Position numbers and translations under genes: made by a program. Positions 28,066-38,590 of a stretch of DNA of 64,000 bases are shown piece after piece (position 1 is the stretch's first letter; each line of letters opens with the position of its first letter). Under the pieces are notes generated by a model. That model did no database searches. It saw nothing but the letters and a program-made list of their open reading frames with translations, and was not told the DNA's origin. Source of the stretch: Lacipirellula parvula (GTDB lineage: Bacteria > Planctomycetota > Planctomycetia > Pirellulales > Lacipirellulaceae); contig NZ_AP021861.1 in assembly GCF_009177095.1 (NCBI RefSeq), positions 4,384,501 to 4,448,500 on the forward strand. Direction: 5' to 3'.

Positions 28066-28778
28066 GGCATGGCCTCCGCGGTGAGCCGTGCCGCCGATCT
28101 TGTCGCCGCGACGAACGCCTCGGGCGGCAACTTCTCACAGGTTCCGGCAGGCGACAGCATGGCAAGTTCGCCGGGCTTGAGTCCGAGCCAGGAACGAATC
28201 ACTGCGGCGTCGAGCGCAGGGCTCCAAGCCCAGCCTGCCGGCACGGCGACGCCGTCGGCGAGCGTATAGCGTACTCCCGGCAGGGGCGGCAACGGTACGC
28301 CTTGAATCAAGCATGATTGATCGGCGCTGACCGCGAAAGTCCAGCGTTTCAGCCGGGCTTGCGGCGCTCTGACGGCGTACTCCGTCCATGCGCCGAGCGT
28401 CGTTTGCAGCAAACTCGCTTCGCGCTCTTCACTACTTCTTACTAGCGAGAGCGTCGTAGGCGTGGGGCGGGAAGCAACGAACATACGGTGGGGAACGCTC
28501 AGAGCGATCCACCTCGACAGCGACGTCCAAACCGTCTTCGGCAGTTCGCCGCAGCTAAGACGCCTGCCGACCGGCACGAGGGCGTTCTGGGCCGTCACCA
28601 TGAATCGCTCGCAGCCGATGACCGATCGGAGCGTTCGATCTAGTGAATCGTTCCACTGCGGGCCGCACAACCAAATTCGCCCGCCGCTCACGCAAACCGC
28701 GACGCCGTCCAGATCGCGGAGCTGCGCGAACGCCGGCGCCGACTCAAGCGGTGCAGAGGCGGCCCAAGTCGGGGTCAT
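28062..28778 (-). CDS. ternary-system accessory protein (bpX-type)
   Basis: A 238-residue protein between the MoxR ATPase and the vWA-like gene, overlapping both by four bases (ATGA). It reads as a beta-rich amino-terminal half (VAVCVSGGRIWLCG, FMVTAQNALVPVGRRL) and a second half with conserved-looking PPLPGVRYTLADGVAVPAGWAWSPAL. This last pattern is typical of a bpX domain in MoxR-vWA-propeller systems. No catalytic residues are apparent. Its position in a tight operon supports a structural role in the same complex. Confidence 0.65.
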   Translation of the reverse strand: MTPTWAASAPLESAPAFAQLRDLDGVAVCVSGGRIWLCGPQWNDSLDRTLRSVIGCERFMVTAQNALVPVGRRLSCGELPKTVWTSLSRWIALSVPHRMFVASRPTPTTLSLVRSSEEREASLLQTTLGAWTEYAVRAPQARLKRWTFAVSADQSCLIQGVPLPPLPGVRYTLADGVAVPAGWAWSPALDAAVIRSWLGLKPGELAMLSPAGTCEKLPPEAFVAATRSAARLTAEAMP

Positions 28779-29932
28779 GCATTGGCTCCGATGCGCGTCC
28801 AGAGTTCGCTGGCCATTTGTTCAAGTTCAGCCCGCTGCCGCGGATCAGTCACCCATTGGCAGCGAGTCGAGAGGAGCGCGAGCTTGTCGCGCACGACGCT
28901 TCGCTGCGCCGAATCTCCTGCGGAGGCTGCGACTTCGTCGCCAAGTTGCGTCAAATCGCTGGCCAACCGTTCGGGATCTGGCGCCTCGGCGACGCGCGAC
29001 TGAGGATGGCCGGCGGCCAAGTCGCTTTCCTCGGCAGCTTCGAGCGCCTGTTTCACCAGTGCCGCCAGAACGTCTTGCTCCTCTTCCGAGTTCCAGATGT
29101 AACGCAGCACCCAGACGTCCGCTTGATTCGCTTTCATCCTACCGCACAGGATAGCGCTTGCCGCGAGCAGGTTTTGCAGCTTTACGGCACGCCGATCGGA
29201 GATCGCGAGACCTGCTCGGCGAAGTTGCTGAATCAACTCGACGTACCGCGGCAGCACGGCGGAGAGGTCGACCTGCTTGACTAGCGACTGCAGCGTTCGA
29301 ATGTCTTCGACGCTCACCTGGCTGCTGCTTCCCTGGGCATGTCCGTCGAGTTTCCAGCCTGCAACCAGCACTTGCTGCAAACTATCGTCGGCAACGTTGT
29401 AACAGCCGACGCGGACGAGGAAGCGGTCGATCAACGCTTGCAGCGACTCGTCCTCCGGCAAGTGATTGCTGGCGCCGACGACCATCAAAGTGTGCAAGGG
29501 CCTGGCTTCTCGTCCGCGGCGAAACACGCGCTCGTTGAGGACCATGAGCAGGCTGTTGAGAATTGCGCTGTTCGAATTCAATAGTTCGTCGAGAAAGACG
29601 AAGTCGGCTTCGGGAAGCATGCCTTCAGTATTCGTCTCAAGCTCGCCGTCGCGCAGCTTGCGAATGTCGAACGGGCCGAAGATTTCGTTCGGTTCCGTAA
29701 ACCGCGTGAGCAGGTAGTCGAAGATGCGTCCGCGAATGCGGCTGGCAAGTTGGTGCACGAGCGCACTCTTCGCCGTTCCGGGCGGCCCGAGCAGAAAGAG
29801 ATTCTCTCGCGCCACCAAGCATAGCCCGAGCAAGTCAATAATCTCGTCTTTGCCGACGAAACTTTGTTTCATCGGCTCCAGAACGCGCTCTCGCAGTTGT
29901 TGCGAGAGGCTCAAAACGTCCGAGTTGGTCAT
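28775..29932 (-). CDS. MoxR-family AAA+ ATPase of a ternary conflict-type system
   Basis: A 385-residue MoxR ATPase. Walker A is GPPGTAKS (near residue 46), Walker B is FVFLDELLNSN, sensor 1 lies in LMVVGASNHLPEDESLQALIDRF with the arginine finger region following, and the C-terminal part has the helical lid (ISDRRAVKLQNLLAASAIL) plus an extra glutamate-rich helical extension of about 100 residues. MoxR proteins remodel partner proteins through vWA adaptors; here the vWA-like protein is two genes downstream. Four-base overlaps on both sides show a single operon. All catalytic motifs look intact. Confidence 0.92.
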   Translation of the reverse strand: MTNSDVLSLSQQLRERVLEPMKQSFVGKDEIIDLLGLCLVARENLFLLGPPGTAKSALVHQLASRIRGRIFDYLLTRFTEPNEIFGPFDIRKLRDGELETNTEGMLPEADFVFLDELLNSNSAILNSLLMVLNERVFRRGREARPLHTLMVVGASNHLPEDESLQALIDRFLVRVGCYNVADDSLQQVLVAGWKLDGHAQGSSSQVSVEDIRTLQSLVKQVDLSAVLPRYVELIQQLRRAGLAISDRRAVKLQNLLAASAILCGRMKANQADVWVLRYIWNSEEEQDVLAALVKQALEAAEESDLAAGHPQSRVAEAPDPERLASDLTQLGDEVAASAGDSAQRSVVRDKLALLSTRCQWVTDPRQRAELEQMASELWTRIGANA

Positions 29933-30591
29933 TCTCCGTTTCCAGCTTGTTCGTCTTCCGATGGAATCGCGTTCAATGCGAGCTGGCGCATCAGCTCAGG
30001 CGCCAGTTCTTGATACAGCCCCAGCGATTCCTCAATCGCTTGCGCCCCCTGCACGCTTTGCATCGCACGCACGTCGCCCGACTCAATTGCCCGATCGGCG
30101 TACATCTGCATCAAGCTAGCAGAGCCGAGCAATGGGGCAATATCGACTTCAGGGGCTTCAATAATTCCTACCGATGACAATGGCCACTGCCGCGCCCATT
30201 CCAGCAGTTCCTGGCGGAGCGGATCGTCCGTTGCCGATCGGCAAAAGGACAACAGATCGGGTAGAAAACGAAAGGCGAGGTCCACGCTGTAGTGGGCTTC
30301 GGGCGAGTTTAACGCTGCGATGGCTTGATTGGCGGGCGTGAAGGCAAAGTCCGGACCATAGTCGCGAAAGAGGGCGTATTGGCAAGCTTTGTAGTAGTGC
30401 GTCGTCGCCCATAACGCCGCCTCGACGTCGAATCGCGGCGGGGCGTCTGGTAGATTGAGGCGATAGGCCTCCTCGAAGTTCGCAAGAAACTCGCGTGTTT
30501 CTTGCAATTCCGACTCGCTCAGGTCGTACGGGGCTGCCGCGCGAGTTCGTCTCCCCTCGAACAGATCTTGCAAGAATTCGCAAAGGTTCAT
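29929..30591 (-). CDS. helical first protein of the MoxR-vWA-propeller operon
   Basis: A 220-residue, almost wholly helical, acidic protein (LCEFLQDLFEGRRTRAA, then LSESELQETREFLANFEEAYRLNLP, ALWATTHYYKACQYALFRDYG). This type heads the MoxR-vWA-propeller operons I know of, where it has no assigned activity. It ends in a four-base overlap with the MoxR gene. The start at 30591 lies 143 bases after the end of rtcA on the same strand, with no clear terminator between, so it may be transcribed from its own promoter or by read-through from the rtc operon. Confidence 0.65.
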   Translation of the reverse strand: MNLCEFLQDLFEGRRTRAAAPYDLSESELQETREFLANFEEAYRLNLPDAPPRFDVEAALWATTHYYKACQYALFRDYGPDFAFTPANQAIAALNSPEAHYSVDLAFRFLPDLLSFCRSATDDPLRQELLEWARQWPLSSVGIIEAPEVDIAPLLGSASLMQMYADRAIESGDVRAMQSVQGAQAIEESLGLYQELAPELMRQLALNAIPSEDEQAGNGE

Positions 30592-30734: not shown

Positions 30735-31793
30735 TCAATTTCCCACCGTTACTCGACAGCAATCTCCTTCGCGGTCGACATTGATCGGAATCTCAAGAAA
30801 GCTGCGTAAGAGATCAATATGCGTCTGCGAGTGTCGAGTGAGGGGCTGCGTGGCGAACGAGCCGCCCCGGCCCGTCTGCCAAGCGGCGATTCCCAGCGGC
30901 AACAGGAGTTGATCCGCCAGGTAAGGGCCGACCGGTGCGCCGCTCGCCAGGTAGCTGCGGGCCTCCTTCACGGCCTCGCCGGCGACGCGCTCCGCCGTGG
31001 CGCCGATGCGGCCGAAGCCAGTGAAGACTTCGCGAACATGCTCCGAGTGAATCTCGATCAGGAAGACGTTTCCCGGTCCGGCCGAGTCGATGCTCGCGTC
31101 GACATGAAGCGCCGAGTCAGGCCAGCTGAGCTTTTCAGCGGCTAGTTCGACTTCGCGCCGACCAATCCGCGGCGACAGGTTCGCCACGAGAGCGGTCGCG
31201 GAGCGCTGGAGGATCTCGCCCCGTTCCAGCAGATCGAAACCTGCAAGCTGCGGCGTTGGTTCGATCGCCACGCTGAAACGCCCGCCGCCGGCTGGATAGA
31301 AGCCGTGGCGTTCCAACCCTGCTGAAACGCGCGGGCCCATGCGGTTGATCAGCGGGAAGAAGGCTTGTGAGAGAAAGTCGAACGGCGGCGCCCAGGGATT
31401 GTGCGTCCCGCCTTCGAGCACGATCTCCGACGGCCCGTGGGCAATCAACAGCGCCGGCAGAATCGTTTGCAACACGAGCGTCGCACTGCCGGCGGTGCCG
31501 ACCGAGAAGGTGCGCTGCCCCGGCCGGATCGCCGTTGGGCGAAAGGAGAGCGTTTGCGAACCGATTTCGTCTCCCTCGACTTCCGCGGCGCCGATTTCGA
31601 CCGCAGCGCGCACCGCGGTGAGATGCTGCCGCATGAGGCCGGGTTTATCGCGTCCGGCGCGGATATTTTCCAAGCGAACCGGACGACCGGTCACGAGCGC
31701 GAGGGCGAGTGACGAACGGAGGATTTGTCCGCCGCCTTCGCCTTGCGAGCCGTCGATTGTGGCGCATTCGGTCCTAATTTTGCTGTCCCTCAC
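30735..31793 (-). CDS. rtcA: RNA 3'-terminal phosphate cyclase
   Basis: RtcA turns an RNA 3'-phosphate into a 2',3'-cyclic phosphate using ATP. Signature parts: EGGGQILRSSLALAL near the start, RAGRDKPGLMRQHL, the GTAGSATLVLQTILP segment, GGTHNPWAPPFDFL, and the catalytic histidine region TRHSQTHIDLL near the C terminus. At 352 residues it is of normal length. It overlaps the upstream unknown gene by 20 bases. The product can be joined by the RtcB ligase of the same operon after opening, so the locus can both heal and seal broken RNA. Regulation is probably through RtcR and the sigma-54 promoter in front of rsr. Confidence 0.96.
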   Translation of the reverse strand: MRDSKIRTECATIDGSQGEGGGQILRSSLALALVTGRPVRLENIRAGRDKPGLMRQHLTAVRAAVEIGAAEVEGDEIGSQTLSFRPTAIRPGQRTFSVGTAGSATLVLQTILPALLIAHGPSEIVLEGGTHNPWAPPFDFLSQAFFPLINRMGPRVSAGLERHGFYPAGGGRFSVAIEPTPQLAGFDLLERGEILQRSATALVANLSPRIGRREVELAAEKLSWPDSALHVDASIDSAGPGNVFLIEIHSEHVREVFTGFGRIGATAERVAGEAVKEARSYLASGAPVGPYLADQLLLPLGIAAWQTGRGGSFATQPLTRHSQTHIDLLRSFLEIPINVDREGDCCRVTVGN

Positions 31794-32829
31794 TTTCGAA
31801 GAGCCACTTCAAAACCACTCGTGTTGGCGCTGGGCAGAGTCCTCTGCTCAACCAGTTTGAGAATTCATGGTGAACCAGTGGTGCGATATTGAATGGCGCT
31901 TCCAGTATATGGCGACATGTAGCATCGAATGCGAACATGAGTGTTTCGCGAGCGCACAGCTGAGAAATGCGAGCCAACTCATCCTCCATCTTCTTATTCG
32001 ACGCTCGGTGGATTAACCCACTTCCGTAAATAAGGGCATCCAGCAGGTCTTCGTTACTAACGCCACACAATTCTTTGATTGGCGGAAATCTCCAATCGCC
32101 TGCAAGGCTTCCGCTGAATCTATCAATCTCGTAGTGCATCCAAGCACGCTTTGAATCGGAGTCAACGTGCTTCGAGTAGAGGTTTGCAATACCCCGAAAA
32201 ACGTCGTCTCTCCTGAGAAGCAACTGCCTTATCAGAGGGAACACTGCAGTGAAGCATTCAATGTCCCCGAGTTGAAGGCGATACGGACCTTTGCCGCTCC
32301 AAGACAGTTTCGGTTTGCTATTCCACCAGCGTCCCTTCTGGATCAACGTAATCAACTGTAAAAAATGCATAACATCATTCGACTCTTGGATGCCCCACTC
32401 CTCAGGAACTAGCATTTCTGACGGGCCGAGTCGCAAGACGCTCGTCACGTTGCCCATGATGATTGGATTTTCAACGCCACTGATAATTGCCAGTAGATCA
32501 ACTTCATCTAGATTCTCGCCACTTTCGTCCTCAAAATAGTCGGTTAGATTTATTCCTCCAAACCCATTGCTGTTGAGAAGCTCGCTCTTAAAAGACTGCT
32601 CATCGTGCTCGCGAAAGAGATGGCGAAAAGCAATGAGCGCTCGATGTTTGCGACGATCGTCGAGCAAAGGTGCAACTGTCTCCAACTCCTCGTCGCTCGT
32701 ACAGAGTGACGGGTCGAAAATTAGCCGTCGATCAAACATCGTCTTCGTTTGGCGATTGATCGCGCTGACATACCACGGAAACTTTTTTGATGACAAGTTG
32801 TACCGAGATAGAATTATTTCTCTAGTCAT
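31774..32829 (-). CDS. unrecognised protein between rtcB and rtcA
   Basis: A 351-residue protein with no family I recognise. It is mixed alpha/beta, rich in polar and aromatic residues (FRHLFREHDEQSFKSELL, MHFLQLITLIQKGRWWN, ELCGVSNEDLLDALIYGSGLIHR). The start taken is the ATG at 32829, which overlaps the rtcB stop by eight bases; the 3' end overlaps rtcA by 20 bases. This coupling means it is made with the ligase and cyclase. Its base composition looks clearly poorer in G+C than rtcB and rtcA, suggesting a later insertion into the operon. It could be an RNA-handling or defence protein, but no nuclease or ligase motif can be seen. Confidence 0.75.
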   Translation of the reverse strand: MTREIILSRYNLSSKKFPWYVSAINRQTKTMFDRRLIFDPSLCTSDEELETVAPLLDDRRKHRALIAFRHLFREHDEQSFKSELLNSNGFGGINLTDYFEDESGENLDEVDLLAIISGVENPIIMGNVTSVLRLGPSEMLVPEEWGIQESNDVMHFLQLITLIQKGRWWNSKPKLSWSGKGPYRLQLGDIECFTAVFPLIRQLLLRRDDVFRGIANLYSKHVDSDSKRAWMHYEIDRFSGSLAGDWRFPPIKELCGVSNEDLLDALIYGSGLIHRASNKKMEDELARISQLCARETLMFAFDATCRHILEAPFNIAPLVHHEFSNWLSRGLCPAPTRVVLKWLFESEGQQN

Positions 32830-34339
32830 CCGCCTGATCTCCATCCTTGACGACAAACTTCGCCTTCAACCGCGCCACTTCGCTCGCCAGCCCCGCGCTC
32901 TTCACTGAACGCAGCACCTCGTCAAAATCTTTGTACGCTGCAGGCGCTTCGTCGATCGGGTACGCCCGGCAATTCGTGAGGATGTCGGCCTCGTCGAACG
33001 AGCGGTCGACTTCTTTTTGGTCAAGCGCACGCTTCGCCGCCTTGCGACCTAGTTGCCGGCCGGCGCCATGGTTGACGCTGTAGCAACTCACCGAGGCTCC
33101 CGCGTCGGCGGCCATCACGACCGAACCCGCCTGCGGATTGCCAGGCAGCAAAATCGGGTGCCCCGTCCCGGCGAACGGCGTATCGCGCAGCGAGTGATGC
33201 CCGGCCGGGAAGGCCCGCGTCGCTCCCTTGCGGTGGACCCACGCGATGCCGTTGTTCACCACTTCCTTCCGCGCGATGTTGTGGCTGATGAAATAGACCA
33301 GCTGGCCGGTGACGCCCGGCAACACTTCTTGGAACGCTTCCAGCACCAGCGCGTTGATCAGCAGGTGATTGACGGTCGCAAAGTTGGCGCCGAGCGCCAT
33401 GTCGTCGATATAGGCGTCGGCCTCAGGCGTGCCGAGCGGGGCGTAAACAAGTTCGCGGTCGCCGCCCGGGAGGGGGATATCCCACTGGGCGAACTTGCCT
33501 TGCAGGGCCTTGAACTGCCCCGACGCCAACTGGTGGCCGATGCCGCGCGAACCGCAGTGCGACAGGAACGCGACGCCGCCGTCGACGAGCCCGAAGACCC
33601 GCGCCGCTTCGCGCGCACGATCGTTTGCTTCGACATGCACGACTTCGCATTCGCCAAAATGGTTGCCCCCGCCGTAGGAGCCAAGTTGCGTCATCTTTGC
33701 GTCGAAGCGGTGCATTTGCGGCATCAGTTGCTCGAGCCGTAACGCCAGGGCGCCGGTCGAGTCGTCGTGGCCCACGTGCGCGGAATCTTCGCAGCGCGCC
33801 GCCCACTCTGGCGGGATGCCGAGTTCTTCGCACACGCCGCGCGAAGCTCCTTCCACCATGACGCGTTTGCCAAGGGCTTCGCTGACGTGGCGCGACTTCG
33901 GGGCATTCCGCTGACCGCGACCGGCGCCGGTGGGCGTCCGTTCGCAGATCGCGTTGATGAGAGCGCGACGCGTCGGCCGGTCGAGAATCGCGTCGGCCGG
34001 CAGGCTGGTTTGCAGCAGGCTCATCGAACACTTGATGTCGACGCCAACCGGGCCGGGATAGATGTGGGTCGGCGAAACCATGACGCAGCCGACCGGCGCC
34101 CCGTAGCCGCAATGGGCGTCGGGGTTCAGCACCAGATCGGTAACGCCAGGCGCCAGCCGCGAGTTGATCGCCTGCTGCAGGCAGAGGTCGTCGAAGGTGG
34201 CGCGAATCGCCTCGGTGCCGATGACGGTGATCGGCTTCTGCTTTCCGCCGGTCGGTAGAATGGCGGTCGCATCGCCATCGGCGATCATCTGGAACTTGCT
34301 CGGCGCCGAGGGCGAATCGTTGTCAGTGGCGATGCTCAT
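32822..34339 (-). CDS. rtcB: RtcB RNA ligase
   Basis: GTP- and manganese-dependent ligase that joins a 2',3'-cyclic phosphate or 3'-phosphate end to a 5'-OH end. Metal-site segments NPDAHCGYGAPVGCVM, GVDIKCSMS, SYGGGNHFGECEVV and FLSHCGSRGIGHQ are all present, as is the guanylylated histidine in SVNHGAGRQLGRKAAKR. Length is 505 residues, as usual. The ATG at 34339 is used because family homology begins soon after; the open frame upstream runs into the RNA gene at 34366. Directly upstream lie five Y RNA-like genes and rsr. Expression is expected to depend on RtcR. Confidence 0.96.
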   Translation of the reverse strand: MSIATDNDSPSAPSKFQMIADGDATAILPTGGKQKPITVIGTEAIRATFDDLCLQQAINSRLAPGVTDLVLNPDAHCGYGAPVGCVMVSPTHIYPGPVGVDIKCSMSLLQTSLPADAILDRPTRRALINAICERTPTGAGRGQRNAPKSRHVSEALGKRVMVEGASRGVCEELGIPPEWAARCEDSAHVGHDDSTGALALRLEQLMPQMHRFDAKMTQLGSYGGGNHFGECEVVHVEANDRAREAARVFGLVDGGVAFLSHCGSRGIGHQLASGQFKALQGKFAQWDIPLPGGDRELVYAPLGTPEADAYIDDMALGANFATVNHLLINALVLEAFQEVLPGVTGQLVYFISHNIARKEVVNNGIAWVHRKGATRAFPAGHHSLRDTPFAGTGHPILLPGNPQAGSVVMAADAGASVSCYSVNHGAGRQLGRKAAKRALDQKEVDRSFDEADILTNCRAYPIDEAPAAYKDFDEVLRSVKSAGLASEVARLKAKFVVKDGDQADD

Positions 34340-34365
34340 TAGTATCAACTCGTGAGAGTAAAAGG

Positions 34366-34504
34366 GCGGCGACAAGAAATCGAAGAAACAAACACCTGAC
34401 GATCTAACCCGTTGATCTACGGCTCGCACGACAAGTCACGCGATGCCGGCGGGGCTCGAACCCGCTCCCTTCAGGTTCCATGTAGTTCCTTCTGCATTCG
34501 CCGC
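34366..34504 (-). ncRNA. Y RNA-like RNA 5, permuted tRNA-like body
   Basis: Last of five tandem units, just before rtcB. Ends pair as GCGGCGA with TCGCCGC; an inner helix pairs GAAGGAAC with GTTTCTTC (8 pairs, one G-U). Between them lies the conserved CGAATGC...ACTACAT. The body then runs in permuted order: T arm GCGGG-TTCGAGC-CCCGC, an acceptor-like stem beginning CGGC and closing with GCCG after a hairpin, then D arm GATC-AACGGGTTA-GATC. In a tRNA the D arm comes first, so a tRNA caller would see halves only. It is attached through the place where a tRNA has its anticodon stem. This matches bacterial YrlA-type RNAs, which bind the Ro protein encoded upstream. Confidence 0.8.
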
Positions 34505-34533
34505 TGGCTTGGGATGTTTTGTAAGTTTCAAAA

Positions 34534-34669
34534 TGAATGGCGACAAAAGACGAAGAAACAGTCTGATGCTCTAACCACTGAGCTACGGGCGCCGCGCGAG
34601 CGACTGCGCCGGTGGGACTCGAACCCACGACCGTCAGGGCAATGTAGTTCCTTCTGCATTCGCCATTCA
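34534..34669 (-). ncRNA. Y RNA-like RNA 4, permuted tRNA-like body
   Basis: Outer helix TGAATGGCGA with TCGCCATTCA is perfect over ten pairs; inner helix GAAGGAAC with GTTTCTTC. Conserved CGAATGC and ACTACAT are present and the 3' strand has TTGTCG. The body carries T arm GTGGG-TTCGAGT-CCCAC, then an acceptor-like stem CGGCGC against GCGC(C)CCG with one bulged C, closed by a short GC-rich loop, then D arm GCTC-AGTGGTTA-GAGC with the GG that normally docks with the T loop. The order T arm, closed acceptor, D arm is a circular permutation of a tRNA. Boundaries are the ends of the outer helix. Confidence 0.82.
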
Positions 34670-34698
34670 AAGCAGTAAAAGTCTTGTTACGTGGAAAA

Positions 34699-34874
34699 AC
34701 CAAAAGCGAAAGGCGCGACGACAAAATTGATGAAACGGATACGCGCTCTGCCAGACTGAGCTACGGCCCCGTAGTTGTACCAAACGAGTAGAGCCGGTGG
34801 GATTCGAACCCACGACCTCGGGTTCCTAGACCATGTAGTTCCATCCGCATTCGTCGCGCTTTTCGCCTTTGGTT
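34699..34874 (-). ncRNA. Y RNA-like RNA 3, permuted tRNA-like body and long closing stem
   Basis: The outer stem is the longest of the five: about 22 pairs with one mismatch and one G-U, including GCGCGACGA with TCGTCGCGC. The inner helix is GATGGAAC with GTTTCATC, a compensated change relative to units 4 and 5 (GAAGGAAC/GTTTCTTC). The tRNA-like body has T arm GTGGG-TTCGAAT-CCCAC, acceptor-like pairing CGGCTCT with GGGGCCG (seven pairs, two G-U) across an 18-19-base loop, and D arm GCTC-AGTCTGGCA-GAGC. Conserved CGAATGC, ACTACAT and TTGTCG are present. The pairing of acceptor strands within one unit, in reversed order, shows that it is a permuted tRNA mimic and not two stray tRNA halves. Confidence 0.84.
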
Positions 34875-34893
34875 CGATATGGATCGAGTAAAT

Positions 34894-34999
34894 CTCTTGC
34901 GACAAACGGGGGCGAGACATCCCGGCCCGTAAGTTGAAAGTGGACCGGAGGGGATTCGAACCCCCTAAAGCCATGTAGTCACGCTGGCATTCGCAAGAG
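34894..34999 (-). ncRNA. Y RNA-like RNA 2, T arm and acceptor only
   Basis: Outer helix CTCTTGCGA with TCGCAAGAG (nine perfect pairs); inner helix GCGTGAC with GTCTCGC (one U-U mismatch). CGAATGC, ACTACAT and TTTGTCG are in the same places as in the other units. The tRNA-like part has the T arm GGGGG-TTCGAAT-CCCCT and the acceptor-like pairing CCGGTCC with GGGCCGG (seven pairs, one G-U), but only three bases remain where the D arm should be. It is therefore a reduced mimic. It should still attract enzymes that read only the T arm, such as a TruB-type pseudouridine synthase; that is inference. Confidence 0.78.
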
Positions 35000-35043
35000 T
35001 TAGGTTGGTTGTGTATTGACTTCAAAAAACATGAGGGCGCAAC

Positions 35044-35123
35044 CACAACAGAATCGACAAGGGTTCGTCGAGACGGTCACATTGGGTTAAATGTAGTCTC
35101 GAAGGCATTCGATTCCGCTGTTG
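35044..35123 (-). ncRNA. Y RNA-like RNA 1, minimal form without tRNA-like body
   Basis: First unit after rsr. The outer helix pairs about 13 bases (ACAGCGGAATCGA with TCGATTCTGTTGT, two G-U); the inner helix pairs TCGAGAC with GTCTCGA (seven perfect pairs). CGAATGC, GACTACAT and TTGTCG are conserved. In place of a tRNA-like body there is only a small hairpin (ACATT with AATGT). It therefore contains essentially the putative Ro-binding stem alone. Its function could be to fill the Ro ring without recruiting tRNA-reading proteins. Confidence 0.7.
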
Positions 35124-35140
35124 CCAGAAGGTCGCCGTCG

Positions 35141-35174
35141 GGGAGGGAGGGCGCCCGAAACGTCCCTCCCTCCC
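35141..35174 (-). terminator. strong GC hairpin between rsr and the Y RNA genes
   Basis: Eleven bases of GGGAGGGAGGG pair perfectly with CCCTCCCTCCC across a 12-base loop, 12 bases beyond the rsr stop codon and 17 bases before the first Y RNA-like unit. No U-run follows on the minus strand, so it is not a classic intrinsic terminator. It may protect the 3' end of the rsr message or mark a processing point that frees the RNAs from the messenger. Confidence 0.5.
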
Positions 35175-35185
35175 GCACTTGCTCG

Positions 35186-36763
35186 TTACAAACTCACCGC
35201 TTCGATCACGCGGACCCAGTGATCGCTGGCGAACTGGCCGCTCGCCACGTTGGCAAGCAGCTCGAACACTTGATCGCTGAAGCCGCCGACGTTGACGACG
35301 TCGTCCCGCTCCTTAGCTTGCACCGTTCCCGACGGCTGAATGTCGATGCAGACCATTCGCGCCCGCGGGTTACGGGCCTTGAAGGCAGACCATTCGTTCA
35401 TCGTCGCGGTTCGGCCTCCGCCGAAACGACCGTAAGCAGGCGTGTCGATCCACGACTCGTTGTCCGAGACGAAGACCACCAAATCGCCGACGGCACGCCG
35501 CTCGTTGAGCGTCCGCAGCGGGGCGCTGCAGTTCGTACCCGACGGCGGTAACGCCGAGAGCTTCTGTGCGTTCGTCATCACGCTGTCGCGCGGGTTGAGC
35601 CGGACATCAACCGTCTTGTCGTTGAACGGCAGCACCTCCGCCTCCGGATTTTGTCGTAGCACGGCCGCCGCGACGAGCGCCGCCACGTCGATGCAACGGA
35701 CCGCGGTCGTCGCGCCTGGGCGATGGCCGGTGACCGGCGAATGCATCGACCCCGACACGTCGGGGCAGATGAACGCCTTTCCCGCGATGCGCGGCACATT
35801 CTTCAAAGACAGTTCCATGGCGTCTTGCAGGGATTCGCGGACCGCCGTCGGCACGCGAGCGTCGGCGTTCGCGTAGGCCGTCATCAACTGGTACGGGAAG
35901 ACTCGCGCCTTCTCCACCAGCCGAGGATCGCGCAGCCGGTTGGCAATGAGCGTCGTCATTTCAGCATCCTCGAATACTTCGTGTCGCAGAAACGTGTTGA
36001 GATTCATCCGCGTCATTTGCCACGGCGCCGTCCGCGCGATCTGTCGCCAATCTTTCTTCGTGAGCGGCAGCCCCGTCAGCATTTGGAACGGCACGTCGGG
36101 CACGGCGACCTTTCCCGGATTGGTGTTGCGATTGAACTTTTCGTACTGCTTCACCAATTCCGGCAAGACTTCGGCGTTGTGCTGGCGACCAATCAAGTAA
36201 CCGTACAGCGCTTCCCGGGTTGAGTTCGCCGGCTTGGGGTGGACCATTCGCAGCACGTCGGCCAGAGACGGAGCGTTGCCTACTGAACCGGTGAAGAGCT
36301 GCGCATCGCTCCGCGCTTCAAGCCATTGAACGATTAACCGCTTCGGCAGCGTACCGAGGCTCTTGCGCCCCACCGCGCCCGATCGCATGATTTGCACGAA
36401 GTTGCGGAGCATCTTCGGCGAATCGATGACGCGATCAAACGCCTCGGCCAGCAACCCCGGCGAGCGGACCGACAGCACCGCCAACAGGAGCGCCGGCATA
36501 TCTTTCATGTGGCCGCGTTCCCGAGCGTAGATGGCAGTGCGAGCGATGAACTCCGGCTCAACGGCGTTGCATAGCATGAGAACCGTTTCGAGCTGCTCTT
36601 CGGCCGAGGCGTAAAAGGTCGCACCCAGGCAACCGGTCGCCGCGTATTGGGCAAGGGCTTGCTTATCGGTGCGCTGGTACGCGAGGCCGCCGGCTTCGTT
36701 CACGGCGTCGGCCTTCGGAGTCAGGACGCCACGGAGGGACTGAAAGAGTGACTTGTTTGCCAT
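35186..36763 (-). CDS. rsr: Ro60/Rsr ortholog (TROVE-vWA RNA-binding protein)
   Basis: Ring-shaped RNA-binding protein that holds Y RNAs and misfolded RNA and, in other bacteria, feeds RNA to polynucleotide phosphorylase. Most of the protein is a TROVE HEAT-repeat ring (QYAATGCLGATFYASAEEQLE, then TAIYARERGHMKDMPALLLAVLS, FVQIMRSGAVGRKSLGTLPKRLIVQWL). The C-terminal vWA domain has a complete MIDAS: PDVSGSM, a threonine in PSGTNCSAPL, and an aspartate in VFVSDNESW. The ATG at 36763 follows AAGGAAACC. At 525 residues it has the expected length. It is the first gene of the rtc operon, with the Y RNA-like genes immediately downstream, so protein and its RNA partners are made together. Confidence 0.96.
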   Translation of the reverse strand: MANKSLFQSLRGVLTPKADAVNEAGGLAYQRTDKQALAQYAATGCLGATFYASAEEQLETVLMLCNAVEPEFIARTAIYARERGHMKDMPALLLAVLSVRSPGLLAEAFDRVIDSPKMLRNFVQIMRSGAVGRKSLGTLPKRLIVQWLEARSDAQLFTGSVGNAPSLADVLRMVHPKPANSTREALYGYLIGRQHNAEVLPELVKQYEKFNRNTNPGKVAVPDVPFQMLTGLPLTKKDWRQIARTAPWQMTRMNLNTFLRHEVFEDAEMTTLIANRLRDPRLVEKARVFPYQLMTAYANADARVPTAVRESLQDAMELSLKNVPRIAGKAFICPDVSGSMHSPVTGHRPGATTAVRCIDVAALVAAAVLRQNPEAEVLPFNDKTVDVRLNPRDSVMTNAQKLSALPPSGTNCSAPLRTLNERRAVGDLVVFVSDNESWIDTPAYGRFGGGRTATMNEWSAFKARNPRARMVCIDIQPSGTVQAKERDDVVNVGGFSDQVFELLANVASGQFASDHWVRVIEAVSL

Positions 36764-36823: not shown

Positions 36824-36839
36824 TGCATCAGGTGTGCCA
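36824..36839 (-). promoter_or_regulatory. sigma-54 type promoter of the rsr-Y RNA-rtcBA operon
   Basis: On the minus strand the sequence reads TGGCACACCTGATGCA, which matches the sigma-54 consensus TGGCAC-N5-TTGC except for one base (A for the first T of TTGC). The invariant GG and GC have the correct ten-base spacing. It lies about 60 bases upstream of the rsr start codon and faces the rtcR gene, whose product is a sigma-54 activator. RtcR sites would be expected in the 170 bases between it and rtcR; I did not identify a clear palindrome. Confidence 0.75.
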
Positions 36840-37009
36840 ATGGAACGTACATTGAGCTGTTAATTTCCATAAGATGTTTTCTTGATTAGTGTTACGAGTC
36901 ATTTCCATGCGTGAAACCAGGAGCACTTCTGTGGTAAACCAGCGGTATTTATGATATTCTTAGATAGCCGTTTATATGACGGTATACGGACTACTTGAAC
37001 ACGAAACCA

Positions 37010-38590
37010 ATGAAGCAAGTCGCCATTGGCCTCCTGGGCTCCCGACTCGACCAGAGCATCGAAGACGCAAACCGCTGGCAAACCTGGCGGCCCTCAGTCG
37101 CGATCTGCCAACACGAAGATTTCTTGATCGACCGATTTGAGCTGATCTACGACGCCGCGGTGTCGCGGTTGGCCAATAGCGTCGCCGACGACATCCGGTC
37201 GGTTTCCCCGGAGACGGAGGTGAGGCTTCACGAACTCACCTTCCAAGATCCGTGGGATTTCGAGGAGGTGTACGGCGGCCTGCATGCGTTCGCGAGCAGC
37301 TACACGTTTCGCCCGGAGTCGGAGCGCTATCTCGTCAACATCACAACGGGCACCCACGTTCAGCAGATATGTCTCTTCTTGCTTGCGGAATCAGGGCATA
37401 TCCCAGGGCAGTTGCTGCAGGCCTCGCCGCCGCGACGCCAACAGGAAGGGCAGGGGACCTATCGGATCATCGATCTCGATCTGTCGCGCTACGATCAACT
37501 CGCGGCGAGATTCGCGCTGGAACAGCAGGAGAGCCTGTCGTTCCTGAAGTCAGGAATTCAAACGCGCAACGCAGCGTTCAACGCGCTCATCGAACAGATT
37601 GAACGCGTAGCCATCCACAGTCGAGCGCCGCTGTTGATCACGGGGCCTACTGGCGCCGGGAAGAGCCAGCTTGCCCGCCGCGTTTTCGAACTTAAGCAAC
37701 AGCGCCGGCAGCTGGCCGGACGCTTCGTGGAGGTGAACTGCGCCACCTTACGCGGCGATCAGGCGATGTCGGCGCTGTTCGGCCATGAGAAGGGCGCCTA
37801 CACCGGCGCAACAGCCAAGCGAGACGGCTTGCTCCGCGCCGCCGACGGCGGCATGCTCTTTCTCGACGAAATCGGCGAGCTCGGGCTGGACGAACAGGCG
37901 ATGCTGTTGCGCGCCATCGAAGAGAAGCGATTCCTCGCCGTCGGCGCCGACCGCGAGGTTGCCAGCGATTTTCAATTGATTGCCGGCACGAATCGCGACT
38001 TGCAGCGTGCAGTGAATGAAGGCCGATTCCGCGAGGATTTGTTGGCGAGAATCAACCTTTGGACATTTTGCCTGCCGGGCCTGGCTGAGCGTCGCGAGGA
38101 TATCGCCCCCAACTTGGAGTACGAGTTGACGCAGTACTCGGCAAAGACGGGGCAAGTCGTGCGGATGAACAAAGAGGCGACGCAACGGTTCCTCCAATTC
38201 GCGGAGACGGACGCCGCGACGTGGCGAGCCAATTTCCGCGACCTCAACGCCGCCGTAACGCGCATGGCGACCCTCGCCGCTGGCGGACGCATTTCAACTG
38301 ATCTCGTTGAAGAAGAAATTCGACGCCTGCAGACGCAATGGCAGCCCTGCGTCGTCGGCCCGAACGATCGCTCGCTGCCGGAGTTGGTCGACGCGAGTCA
38401 GCTGGACGATTTCGACCGCGTGCAACTAGAGGAAGTGGTGCGGGTATGCCGGCAAAGCAAGACGATCTCCGACGCTGGCCGGAAGTTGTTCGCAGTCTCA
38501 AGAAATTTGAAAGCGAAACCCAACGACGCCGATCGGCTGCGAAAATACTTGGCCCGGTTCGAATTAACCTGGGAATTACTGCATCGCTAA
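37010..38590 (+). CDS. rtcR: RtcR, sigma-54 activator with CARF-like sensor domain
   Basis: Activator of the rtc operon. The amino-terminal domain (residues ~1-170: QVAIGLLGSRLD, WRPSVAICQHEDFLIDRFELI, VNITTGTHVQQICLFLLAESG) is the RtcR-type CARF-like sensor, thought to recognise RNA ends or cyclic nucleotides. The AAA+ domain has Walker A GPTGAGKS, the sigma-54 loop as GAYTGA (Tyr in place of Phe, as usual in RtcR), and Walker B MLFLDEIGEL. The C-terminal region should bind DNA. The ATG at 37010 fits the family start better than the TTG at 36995. It is divergent from rsr with the promoter between them. The sensor and ATPase look intact. Confidence 0.95.
   Translation: MKQVAIGLLGSRLDQSIEDANRWQTWRPSVAICQHEDFLIDRFELIYDAAVSRLANSVADDIRSVSPETEVRLHELTFQDPWDFEEVYGGLHAFASSYTFRPESERYLVNITTGTHVQQICLFLLAESGHIPGQLLQASPPRRQQEGQGTYRIIDLDLSRYDQLAARFALEQQESLSFLKSGIQTRNAAFNALIEQIERVAIHSRAPLLITGPTGAGKSQLARRVFELKQQRRQLAGRFVEVNCATLRGDQAMSALFGHEKGAYTGATAKRDGLLRAADGGMLFLDEIGELGLDEQAMLLRAIEEKRFLAVGADREVASDFQLIAGTNRDLQRAVNEGRFREDLLARINLWTFCLPGLAERREDIAPNLEYELTQYSAKTGQVVRMNKEATQRFLQFAETDAATWRANFRDLNAAVTRMATLAAGGRISTDLVEEEIRRLQTQWQPCVVGPNDRSLPELVDASQLDDFDRVQLEEVVRVCRQSKTISDAGRKLFAVSRNLKAKPNDADRLRKYLARFELTWELLHR

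What the first reader, a model, noticed from the sequence alone, without database searches (positions are those of the whole stretch)
34366..35123. Five tandem Y RNA-like genes with graded, circularly permuted tRNA mimicry between rsr and rtcB
Between the Ro60 gene and the RtcB gene there are five RNA-like units on the minus strand. Three carry a T arm with a TTCGA loop, then a closed acceptor-like stem, then a D arm with GG: a circular permutation of a tRNA. One has T arm and acceptor but no D arm. One has only a small hairpin. All are joined through a two-part stem at the place of the anticodon stem. Known YrlA RNAs are tRNA mimics bound by Rsr, but the operons I know have one or two; five in a row from no mimicry to full mimicry would be unusual.
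Basis: partly seen in the sequence, partly recalled or inferred. Interest (0 to 1): 0.95.

Follow-up and report, generated by a model that had tools for sequence, protein, structure and literature searches.

The report
Five-gene Y RNA tRNA-mimic array
Between the genes for an RNA-binding ring protein and an RNA-repair enzyme, this bacterium keeps five small non-coding RNA genes of which three imitate a transfer RNA, one imitates half of one and one does not; this is an enlarged form of a known gene cluster, and related bacteria often have three to six such genes in a similar order.

Summary
On the minus strand at 34364-35121, between rsr and rtcB of an RtcR-type RNA-repair operon, lie five Y RNA-like units. 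U3, U4 and U5 are YrlA-type (Rfam 66.3, 69.0, 52.0 bits; cut-off 69). U2 has a T arm and a closed acceptor stem but no D arm. U1 resembles YrlB (26.3 bits; cut-off 97). Two sister genomes keep all five in order.

Circular permutation is already published for YrlA, and five in a row is not exceptional: in 81 rsr loci a strict scan finds 237 units, with four or more in 30 loci and up to six; controls on 80 of these loci gave none.

The wider pattern is the better find. Units fall into three length classes. The middle one, with a T arm but no D arm, recurs in four phyla with strong covariation. Arrays tend to run from short to full mimic (151 rising, 27 falling pairs; shuffled 88.7, s.d. 8.3), but the trend is weak among the most divergent loci and in a small hold-out. 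Most likely these are alternative Rsr adaptors in tRNA-damage repair. All evidence is from sequence; no expression was tested.

The parts
35049..35117 (-). U1: short Y RNA, basal stem + upper stem + small hairpin, no T or D arm (class 1, YrlB-like)
   Evidence: YrlB 26.3 bits, below its cut-off of 97; fold z-score -4.37; class 1 covariation score 0.642 vs 0.183 shuffled over 20 units
34894..34999 (-). U2: Y RNA with T arm (TTCGA loop) and closed acceptor-like hairpin, no D arm (class 2)
   Evidence: YrlA 34.3 bits, below the cut-off of 69; class 2 covariation over 17 units; a D arm was found in 0 of 35 class 2 units. Its MFE fold alone does not show the T arm.
34713..34859 (-). U3: full YrlA-type RNA, T arm, acceptor, D arm (class 3)
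   Evidence: YrlA 66.3 bits; basal stem GCGCGA/TCGCGC here, GCGTGA/TCATGC in L065 includes a compensatory change. Its MFE fold alone does not show the T arm.
34535..34668 (-). U4: full YrlA-type RNA (class 3)
   Evidence: YrlA 69.0 bits, at the cut-off; basal stem GAATGG/CCATTC here, GAATAG/CTATTC in L065
34364..34506 (-). U5: full YrlA-type RNA (class 3), ends 24 bases before the rtcB start
   Evidence: YrlA 52.0 bits; MFE shows T arm, acceptor and D arm
34441..34592 (-). Linear-order tRNA-like match made of the D half of U4 and the T half of U5: read as a by-product of permuted units in tandem, not a tRNA gene
   Evidence: RF00005 34.3 bits with acceptor mismatches; ARAGORN finds no tRNA; the same junction match occurs in L065, 38.9 bits
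35186..36763 (-). rsr, Ro60/TROVE ring protein
   Evidence: PF25045 and PF05731; solved relative 2nvo Rsr, E 4.9e-19; far below the NCBIfam Rsr cut-off (73.1 of 900); start placed at MANKS because L064 has a stop at codon 2 of the longer frame
36824..36839 (-). Sigma-54-type promoter TGGCACACCTGATGCA, 76 bases before the rsr start
   Evidence: Read; pattern found in 20 of 48 loci with rtcR and 1 of 28 without
36995..38590 (+). rtcR, divergent sigma-54 activator
   Evidence: NF038308 815.6 bits, over cut-off 650
32822..34339 (-). rtcB, RNA ligase
   Evidence: PF01139 342.7 bits
30735..31793 (-). rtcA, RNA 3'-terminal phosphate cyclase
   Evidence: NF003246 428.5 bits, over cut-off 352
35136..35174 (-). 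Strong GC hairpin just after rsr, without a T run; possible processing or stability element
   Evidence: Fold -30.8 kcal/mol, z -3.18 for 35134-35180; seen also in L064 and L065

Best explanation
This is the Y RNA cassette of an RtcR-type RNA-repair operon (rtcR divergent; rsr, five Y RNAs, rtcB, an extra ORF, rtcA) in a Lacipirellula-like planctomycete. Likely working: cleaved tRNA activates RtcR, which turns on the sigma-54 promoter before rsr; the transcript is cut into five Y RNAs (no promoter-like site was found inside, and the one terminator-like site is no more than chance gives); each binds the Rsr ring by its basal stem and so makes a different Rsr particle. U1 is a plain gate or lid. 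U2 shows the T-arm/acceptor top half of a tRNA. U3-U5 show the T arm, acceptor and D arm. The set lets one ring recruit, or be serviced by, different tRNA-handling partners and thus steers damaged RNA to repair or decay. Shown here by sequence: operon layout, units, helices, covariation, classes, order trend. From published work on relatives: Rsr binding by the basal stem, RtcR activation by tRNA fragments, YrlA as substrate of DusA and TruB, Rsr-YrlA binding to PNPase. Inferred: processing into five RNAs, division of labour among classes.
For: Operon genes. Units. Own pairing against permuted pairing in units not selected on pairing: basal stem 0.82 vs 0.524 (s.d. 0.012, 181 units), T stem 0.952 vs 0.748 (132), acceptor 0.903 vs 0.579 (78). 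Class 2 covariation: 86.2% of cells paired vs 70.9% shuffled, 18 of 27 pairs with changes on both sides; RNAalifold finds basal, upper and T helices and 3 acceptor pairs unprompted. Class 1. Conserved in two sister genomes. Same kind of array across phyla. Sigma-54 site tied to rtcR. Promoter and terminator scan. Literature: PMC7790460 (passages), PMC8394870 (passages), PMC9879122 and PMC4987338 (passages): the Salmonella operon is rsr-yrlB-yrlA-rtcB-rtcA, also short form first.
Against: No transcript or protein binding was tested. U1, U2, U3 and U5 are below the Rfam cut-offs. Single-sequence folding of U3-U5 is only mildly better than shuffles, and the MFE folds of U2 and U3 miss the T arm. 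Halves of U3 and U4 match different host tRNAs best; U5 has tRNA-Asp best for its D half (weakly) and second for its T half, so no copied tRNA is evident. Division of labour has no direct evidence: prediction of class from the Rsr-binding half alone across phyla was only suggestive once leaked acceptor letters were removed (strict set: balanced accuracy 0.56-0.74; shuffled mean about 0.33 but maximum up to 0.73; on all units 0.47-0.73), and by that test U2 looks class 1-like.
Confidence: 0.75

Rival explanations
1. Only the full YrlA units matter; U1 and U2 are decaying duplicates that have lost parts of the tRNA-like domain.
For: They score far below the Rfam cut-offs. U2 has drifted most between sisters (80% to L064). 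Presence of the T-only class needs at least 14 changes on the Rsr tree (22 of 67 loci have it).
Against: Orthologues are 94% (U1) and 80-96% (U2) identical, with spacers less conserved. Both classes recur in several phyla with covariation in every helix tested. The Salmonella operon keeps the short form too.
Confidence: 0.1
2. The units act in cis: hairpins in the operon transcript that slow decay, guide cutting or tune rtcB translation, with no free RNAs.
For: They lie between two genes of one operon; no promoter-like site was found in 34300-35250, and one terminator-like site (in U1) against 1.4 expected in shuffles. U5 ends 24 bases before rtcB. A strong hairpin follows rsr.
Against: A cis role does not explain the tRNA-like T loop and D arm, the conserved Rsr-type motif in every unit, or acidobacterial loci in which units also lie upstream of rsr. 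Published relatives are RNAs bound by Rsr (PMC8394870, passages).
Confidence: 0.12
3. They are permuted or split tRNA genes that give working tRNAs.
For: RF00005 scores 34.3 bits across the U4-U5 junction, above its cut-off of 29.
Against: No anticodon arm was seen inside a unit, ARAGORN finds nothing, the acceptor stem is closed by a loop, and the junction match has acceptor mismatches. Acceptor strands pair better within a unit: 0.903 own (78 units) vs 0.647 swapped within a locus (47 units).
Confidence: 0.02

Closest known systems
YrlA (Rfam RF02553), tRNA-mimicking bacterial Y RNA
   Same: Basal stem with conserved motifs, then T arm, closed acceptor-like stem and D arm in circularly permuted order; lies by rsr. 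U4 reaches the Rfam cut-off.
   Different: Three full copies in tandem in one operon. U3 and U5 fall below the cut-off, and U2 lacks the D arm and is not filed as YrlA.
YrlB (Rfam RF02565), short bacterial Y RNA without tRNA-like domain
   Same: U1 has the same plan and stands first after rsr, as yrlB does in Salmonella.
   Different: 26.3 bits against a cut-off of 97; called YrlB-like only.
Salmonella rsr-yrlBA-rtcBA RNA-repair operon under RtcR
   Same: Gene order, divergent rtcR, sigma-54-type promoter, short Y RNA before long Y RNA (PMC9879122, passages).
   Different: Two Y RNAs there, five here; a T-only form and an extra ORF between rtcB and rtcA are added here.
Deinococcus radiodurans Y RNA and the Rsr/Y RNA/PNPase complex
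   Same: Y RNA as tether and gate of the Rsr ring (PMC4726728, PMC8394870, passages).
   Different: That complex is studied with its own Y RNA; PNPase binding by the RNAs here is untested.

Membership tests
YrlA (RF02553) | Covariance-model score at or above the gathering score of 69 | tested here: inconclusive
   U4 69.0 meets it; U3 66.3, U5 52.0 and U2 34.3 do not.
YrlA (RF02553) | T arm, acceptor-like stem, D arm in permuted order | tested here: met
   U3-U5 in the model alignments and parser. Not met by U2 (no D arm) and U1.
YrlA (RF02553) | Rsr-binding basal stem with its conserved motifs | tested here: met
   CGAATGC/ACTACAT and TTGTCG motifs and pairing in all five.
YrlA (RF02553) | Binds Rsr; modified by tRNA enzymes | not testable with these tools
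   Needs bench work.
YrlB (RF02565) | Covariance-model score at or above the gathering score of 97 | tested here: not met
   U1 26.3 bits, E 0.009.
RtcR-controlled RNA-repair operon with rsr | Divergent rtcR, sigma-54-type promoter, rsr, Y RNAs, rtcB and rtcA | tested here: met
   regulation itself untested.
Canonical or permuted tRNA gene | Anticodon arm and matching acceptor stem giving a CCA-ended tRNA | tested here: not met
   ARAGORN none; the junction match has acceptor mismatches.

The most novel reading that the evidence does not exclude
Bacterial Y RNAs come as an ordered kit of three classes in one operon. The middle class is an undescribed third family that imitates only the top half of a tRNA (T arm plus closed acceptor stem), so the kit offers enzymes none, half or all of a tRNA's landmarks on the same Rsr ring, with position in the operon setting the supply of each.
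Probability: 0.38. Interest if true: 0.7.

Novelty: new variant of a known kind. Interest (0 to 1): 0.5.

Why it matters
What the tRNA-like part of bacterial Y RNAs is for is an open question (PMC7790460 mentions a role in tRNA decay or as a decoy for the nuclease without deciding; passages). Natural arrays that hold a no-mimic, a half-mimic and full mimics on the same kind of basal stem are a ready-made dissection series: the same ring protein, the same operon, and one feature added at a time. It also shows that Rfam at its cut-offs sees about one unit per locus (12 of 59 scanned units, in 11 of 13 loci, all of them full-length class 3), so bacterial Y RNAs are under-counted in such loci.

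Tried and rejected
Looked for a single host tRNA as the source of the mimics, with 66 distinct ARAGORN tRNA sequences from the same genome: the best matches of the D and T halves differ in U3 and U4; in U5 tRNA-Asp is best for the D half (score 13 over 27 letters) and second for the T half (20 over 30). No source claimed.

Tested whether a third helix stands at the anticodon-stem place in 102 full units: no excess over permuted partners. Not claimed.

Tested whether class can be read from the Rsr-binding half alone. The first version let acceptor letters leak in; after removing them the result is only suggestive. Not used as support.

The order trend was checked for relatedness. One locus per 80% Rsr identity (44 loci): class 1 first 23 vs 11.6 shuffled, 81 rising vs 18 falling pairs. 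At 70% (32 loci): 14 vs 6.5, 60 vs 14. At 62% (17 loci): 8 vs 6.2 (p 0.17), class 3 last 10 vs 9.7 (p 0.56), 19 vs 7 pairs (p 0.04). A hold-out of 12 planctomycete loci with two or more units (of 20 looked at): class 1 first in 7 (4.3 expected, p 0.05), class 3 last in 6 (5.9 expected), 11 rising vs 5 falling (p 0.14). So the trend is clear among moderately related loci and weak beyond. In the main count L064, L065 and L127 were dropped as near-copies, leaving 64 of the 67 loci with two or more units.

Sampling limits: the 80 loci are the best 80 of 91 confirmed relatives of this Rsr; two of the three loci with no unit (L066, L116) have almost no sequence after rsr. Six divergent planctomycete loci (L058-L063) gave no unit with my motif scan, although Rfam shows a YrlA match near rsr in those genomes, so the scan is a lower bound and is tuned to this kind of motif. 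In 41 short exact-motif units, 5 hold a TTCRA motif and 3 of these a T-like stem; at least one unit of that set (window U5) was cut short by an inner TTGTCG.

Key sources not held: the papers I take to be Chen 2014, Wang 2018, Sim and Wolin 2018, Boccitto and Wolin 2019, Wolin 2013 and Sim 2020 (ids of all but the first lookup taken from reference lists). Whether they describe arrays or a T-only form is unknown to me. In the open-access searches (several listings were capped) I saw none in the titles and abstract starts listed, nor in the passages that I read of eight papers.

Full report
WHAT IS THERE. The window is from a planctomycete close to Lacipirellula: its Rsr is 92% identical to that of Lacipirellula limnantheis I41 (L065) and 95% to a Pirellula-labelled bin (L064). 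The operon reads, on the minus strand, rsr (35186-36763), five Y RNA-like units (34364-35117), rtcB (32822-34339), an ORF without family (31774-32856) and rtcA (30735-31793), with rtcR divergent at 36995-38590. A sigma-54-type site, TGGCACACCTGATGCA, stands 76 bases before the rsr start. That pattern occurs upstream of rsr in 20 of 48 related loci with rtcR on that side and 1 of 28 without (four of the 80 loci had too little upstream sequence).

THE FIVE UNITS. With a loose threshold on 34200-35300, Rfam gives YrlA for U4 (69.0 bits), U3 (66.3), U5 (52.0) and U2 (34.3), and YrlB for U1 (26.3). Only U4 reaches its cut-off. The genome search found no other YrlA match at E 0.001 (150 of 503 candidates scored). 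A tRNA match over its cut-off at 34441-34592 (34.3 bits) joins the D half of U4 to the T half of U5: repeats of a permuted tRNA put tRNA halves in normal order across unit borders. Its acceptor stem has mismatches and ARAGORN calls no tRNA in the window. L065 shows the same by-product (38.9 bits). MFE folding of single units shows the T arm in U4 and U5 but not in U2 and U3.

CONSERVATION AND COVARIATION. L064 and L065 keep five units of the same types in the same order. Orthologues are 80-96% identical, paralogues 39-72%; 533 of 604 unit columns are identical in all three genomes against 158 of 258 spacer columns. Among 181 units in 70 loci chosen by exact motifs and not by pairing, each unit pairs with itself far better than with others: basal stem 0.82 own, 0.524 permuted (s.d. 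0.012, maximum 0.559 in 500), 0.533 swapped within the locus; T stem 0.952 vs 0.748 (132 units); acceptor 0.903 vs 0.579 (78 units). Examples in the sisters: U4 basal stem GAATGG/CCATTC here and GAATAG/CTATTC in L065; U3 GCGCGA/TCGCGC here and GCGTGA/TCATGC in L065.

COPY NUMBER IS NOT UNUSUAL. A strict scan of the 1600 bases after rsr in 80 relatives and 1000 bases in the window finds 237 units: 6 in two loci, 5 in eight, 4 in twenty, 3 in twenty, 2 in seventeen, 1 in eleven, 0 in three; on the 80 relatives, the reverse strand, rsr coding sequence and shuffled sequence gave 0. Seven loci had under 1600 bases downstream. Eight of the ten loci with five or more remain if the two sisters are not counted. 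On the Rsr tree the label 'five or more' needs at least five changes. At Rfam cut-offs only 12 of 59 scanned units in 13 of these loci are seen, all of them full-length class 3 units, which may be why one or two per locus is the usual impression (inference). In 30 rsr loci from the planctomycete phylum search the window's five is the highest strict count; the next are fours.

THREE CLASSES. By length the units fall under 80 nt (57; no T or D arm by my parser), 80-104 nt (40; 26 with a T arm, none with a D arm) and 105 nt or more (140; 102 with both). In exact-motif units of the middle class the T arm is found in 26 of 35 (0.4% in shuffled cores) and a D arm in 0 of 35 (0.8% in shuffled cores), against a D arm in 76 of 105 long units; among the 30 with a TTCRA motif a hairpin of at least 5 bp right after the T arm is found in 27. 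The 35 come from Verrucomicrobiota (13), Acidobacteriota (10), Planctomycetota (8) and Pseudomonadota (4). On 17 middle-class units chosen for having a T arm, the proposed structure pairs in 86.2% of cells vs 70.9% shuffled, with changes on both sides in 18 of 27 pairs; sliding the partners by 1-3 columns drops pairing to 43.7-55.4%. RNAalifold finds the basal, upper and T helices and three acceptor pairs unprompted. The acceptor-like helix is the weakest (66.3% paired), partly because its length varies. Twenty short-class units pair in 92.7% of cells vs 69.4%.

ORDER. Among 64 loci with two or more units (L064, L065, L127 dropped), the first unit is short in 39 (17.4 expected by shuffling, s.d. 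3.0), the last is full-length in 54 (36.3, s.d. 3.5), and 151 pairs rise in class against 27 that fall (88.7, s.d. 8.3; maximum of 2000 shuffles 117). Shared descent inflates this. With one locus per 80% or 70% Rsr identity it holds; at 62% and in a 12-locus hold-out it is weak. Salmonella's rsr-yrlB-yrlA-rtcB-rtcA order fits (PMC9879122, passages). There are clear exceptions, such as L069 and L091.

HISTORY. On a quick tree of 87 Rsr proteins the window and its two sisters group with Phycisphaerae bins and one Holophagales bin (forks of 86-87% SH-aLRT, not starred), while Rsr of six other planctomycetes (five of the same order, one of the same class) lie on a separate, fully supported branch. 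Transfer between lineages is a fair inference but not tested further.

HOW IT PROBABLY WORKS. Published work on relatives gives the frame: RtcR is activated by 5' tRNA fragments with a cyclic phosphate end (PMC7790460, passages); Y RNA is bound by Rsr through its basal stem, YrlA is a substrate of DusA and TruB, and Rsr-YrlA associates with PNPase (PMC8394870, PMC9879122, PMC4987338, passages). I infer that the five RNAs are cut from the operon transcript, compete for one Rsr ring, and offer none, half or all of the tRNA landmarks. A natural prediction is that T-arm enzymes act on U2-U5 and D-arm enzymes on U3-U5 only. That T-arm enzymes need only the T arm is recalled knowledge, not checked here.

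WHAT IS KNOWN. Circular permutation of a bacterial Y RNA relative to tRNA is in print (PMC11472068, passages). In the abstract of Chen 2014 as I recall it, at least one Y RNA of each species has a tRNA-like domain, which implies several per species; that paper is not held. I found no open-access description of graded arrays or of a T-only Y RNA in the listings of searches, but the main papers of the field could not be read.

VERDICT. A sound observation of an ordinary kind of locus, with a more general pattern behind it. New variant of a known kind.

Noticed in passing
L074, L078, L079, L080, L081, L084, L088, L089, L092, L097, L098, L102, upstream of rsr: In 12 of 17 acidobacterial rsr loci scanned (two of the other five, L076 and L113, have no upstream sequence), 8 or more tRNA genes in the same orientation are packed before rsr and its Y RNAs, up to 32 in L088, covering all 20 amino acids. 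In the genome of L088, 29 of 62 tRNA matches lie in this stretch, so it looks like a second, nearly complete tRNA set linked to Rsr and Y RNAs.
   Followed up: partly
L074, L081, L084, L092, L097: Acidobacterial loci with Y RNA units both upstream and downstream of rsr, near tRNA genes, and a distant rtcB-like gene (27-28% identity) downstream.
   Followed up: no
31774-32856 (-): ORF of 360 aa between rtcB and rtcA with no Pfam or NCBIfam match at E 0.001 and no tblastn match at 1e-8 in the sequence held for any of 80 related rsr loci, including both sisters: apparently an insertion in this genome.
   Followed up: partly
28775-30591 (-): bpMoxR ATPase and bpX4 genes of the MoxR-vWA-beta-propeller ternary systems follow after rtcA.
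   Followed up: no
L069, L070, L078, L101: Some middle-class Y RNAs have an extra small hairpin 5' of the T arm, where a tRNA would have a long variable arm.
   Followed up: no
G000:C1:5888526-5892167 and 5926223-5926732: The window's own genome has clusters of mostly low-scoring tRNA genes away from rsr.
   Followed up: no
35136-35174 (-): Very stable GC hairpin right after rsr, kept in both sisters, with no T run.
   Followed up: no
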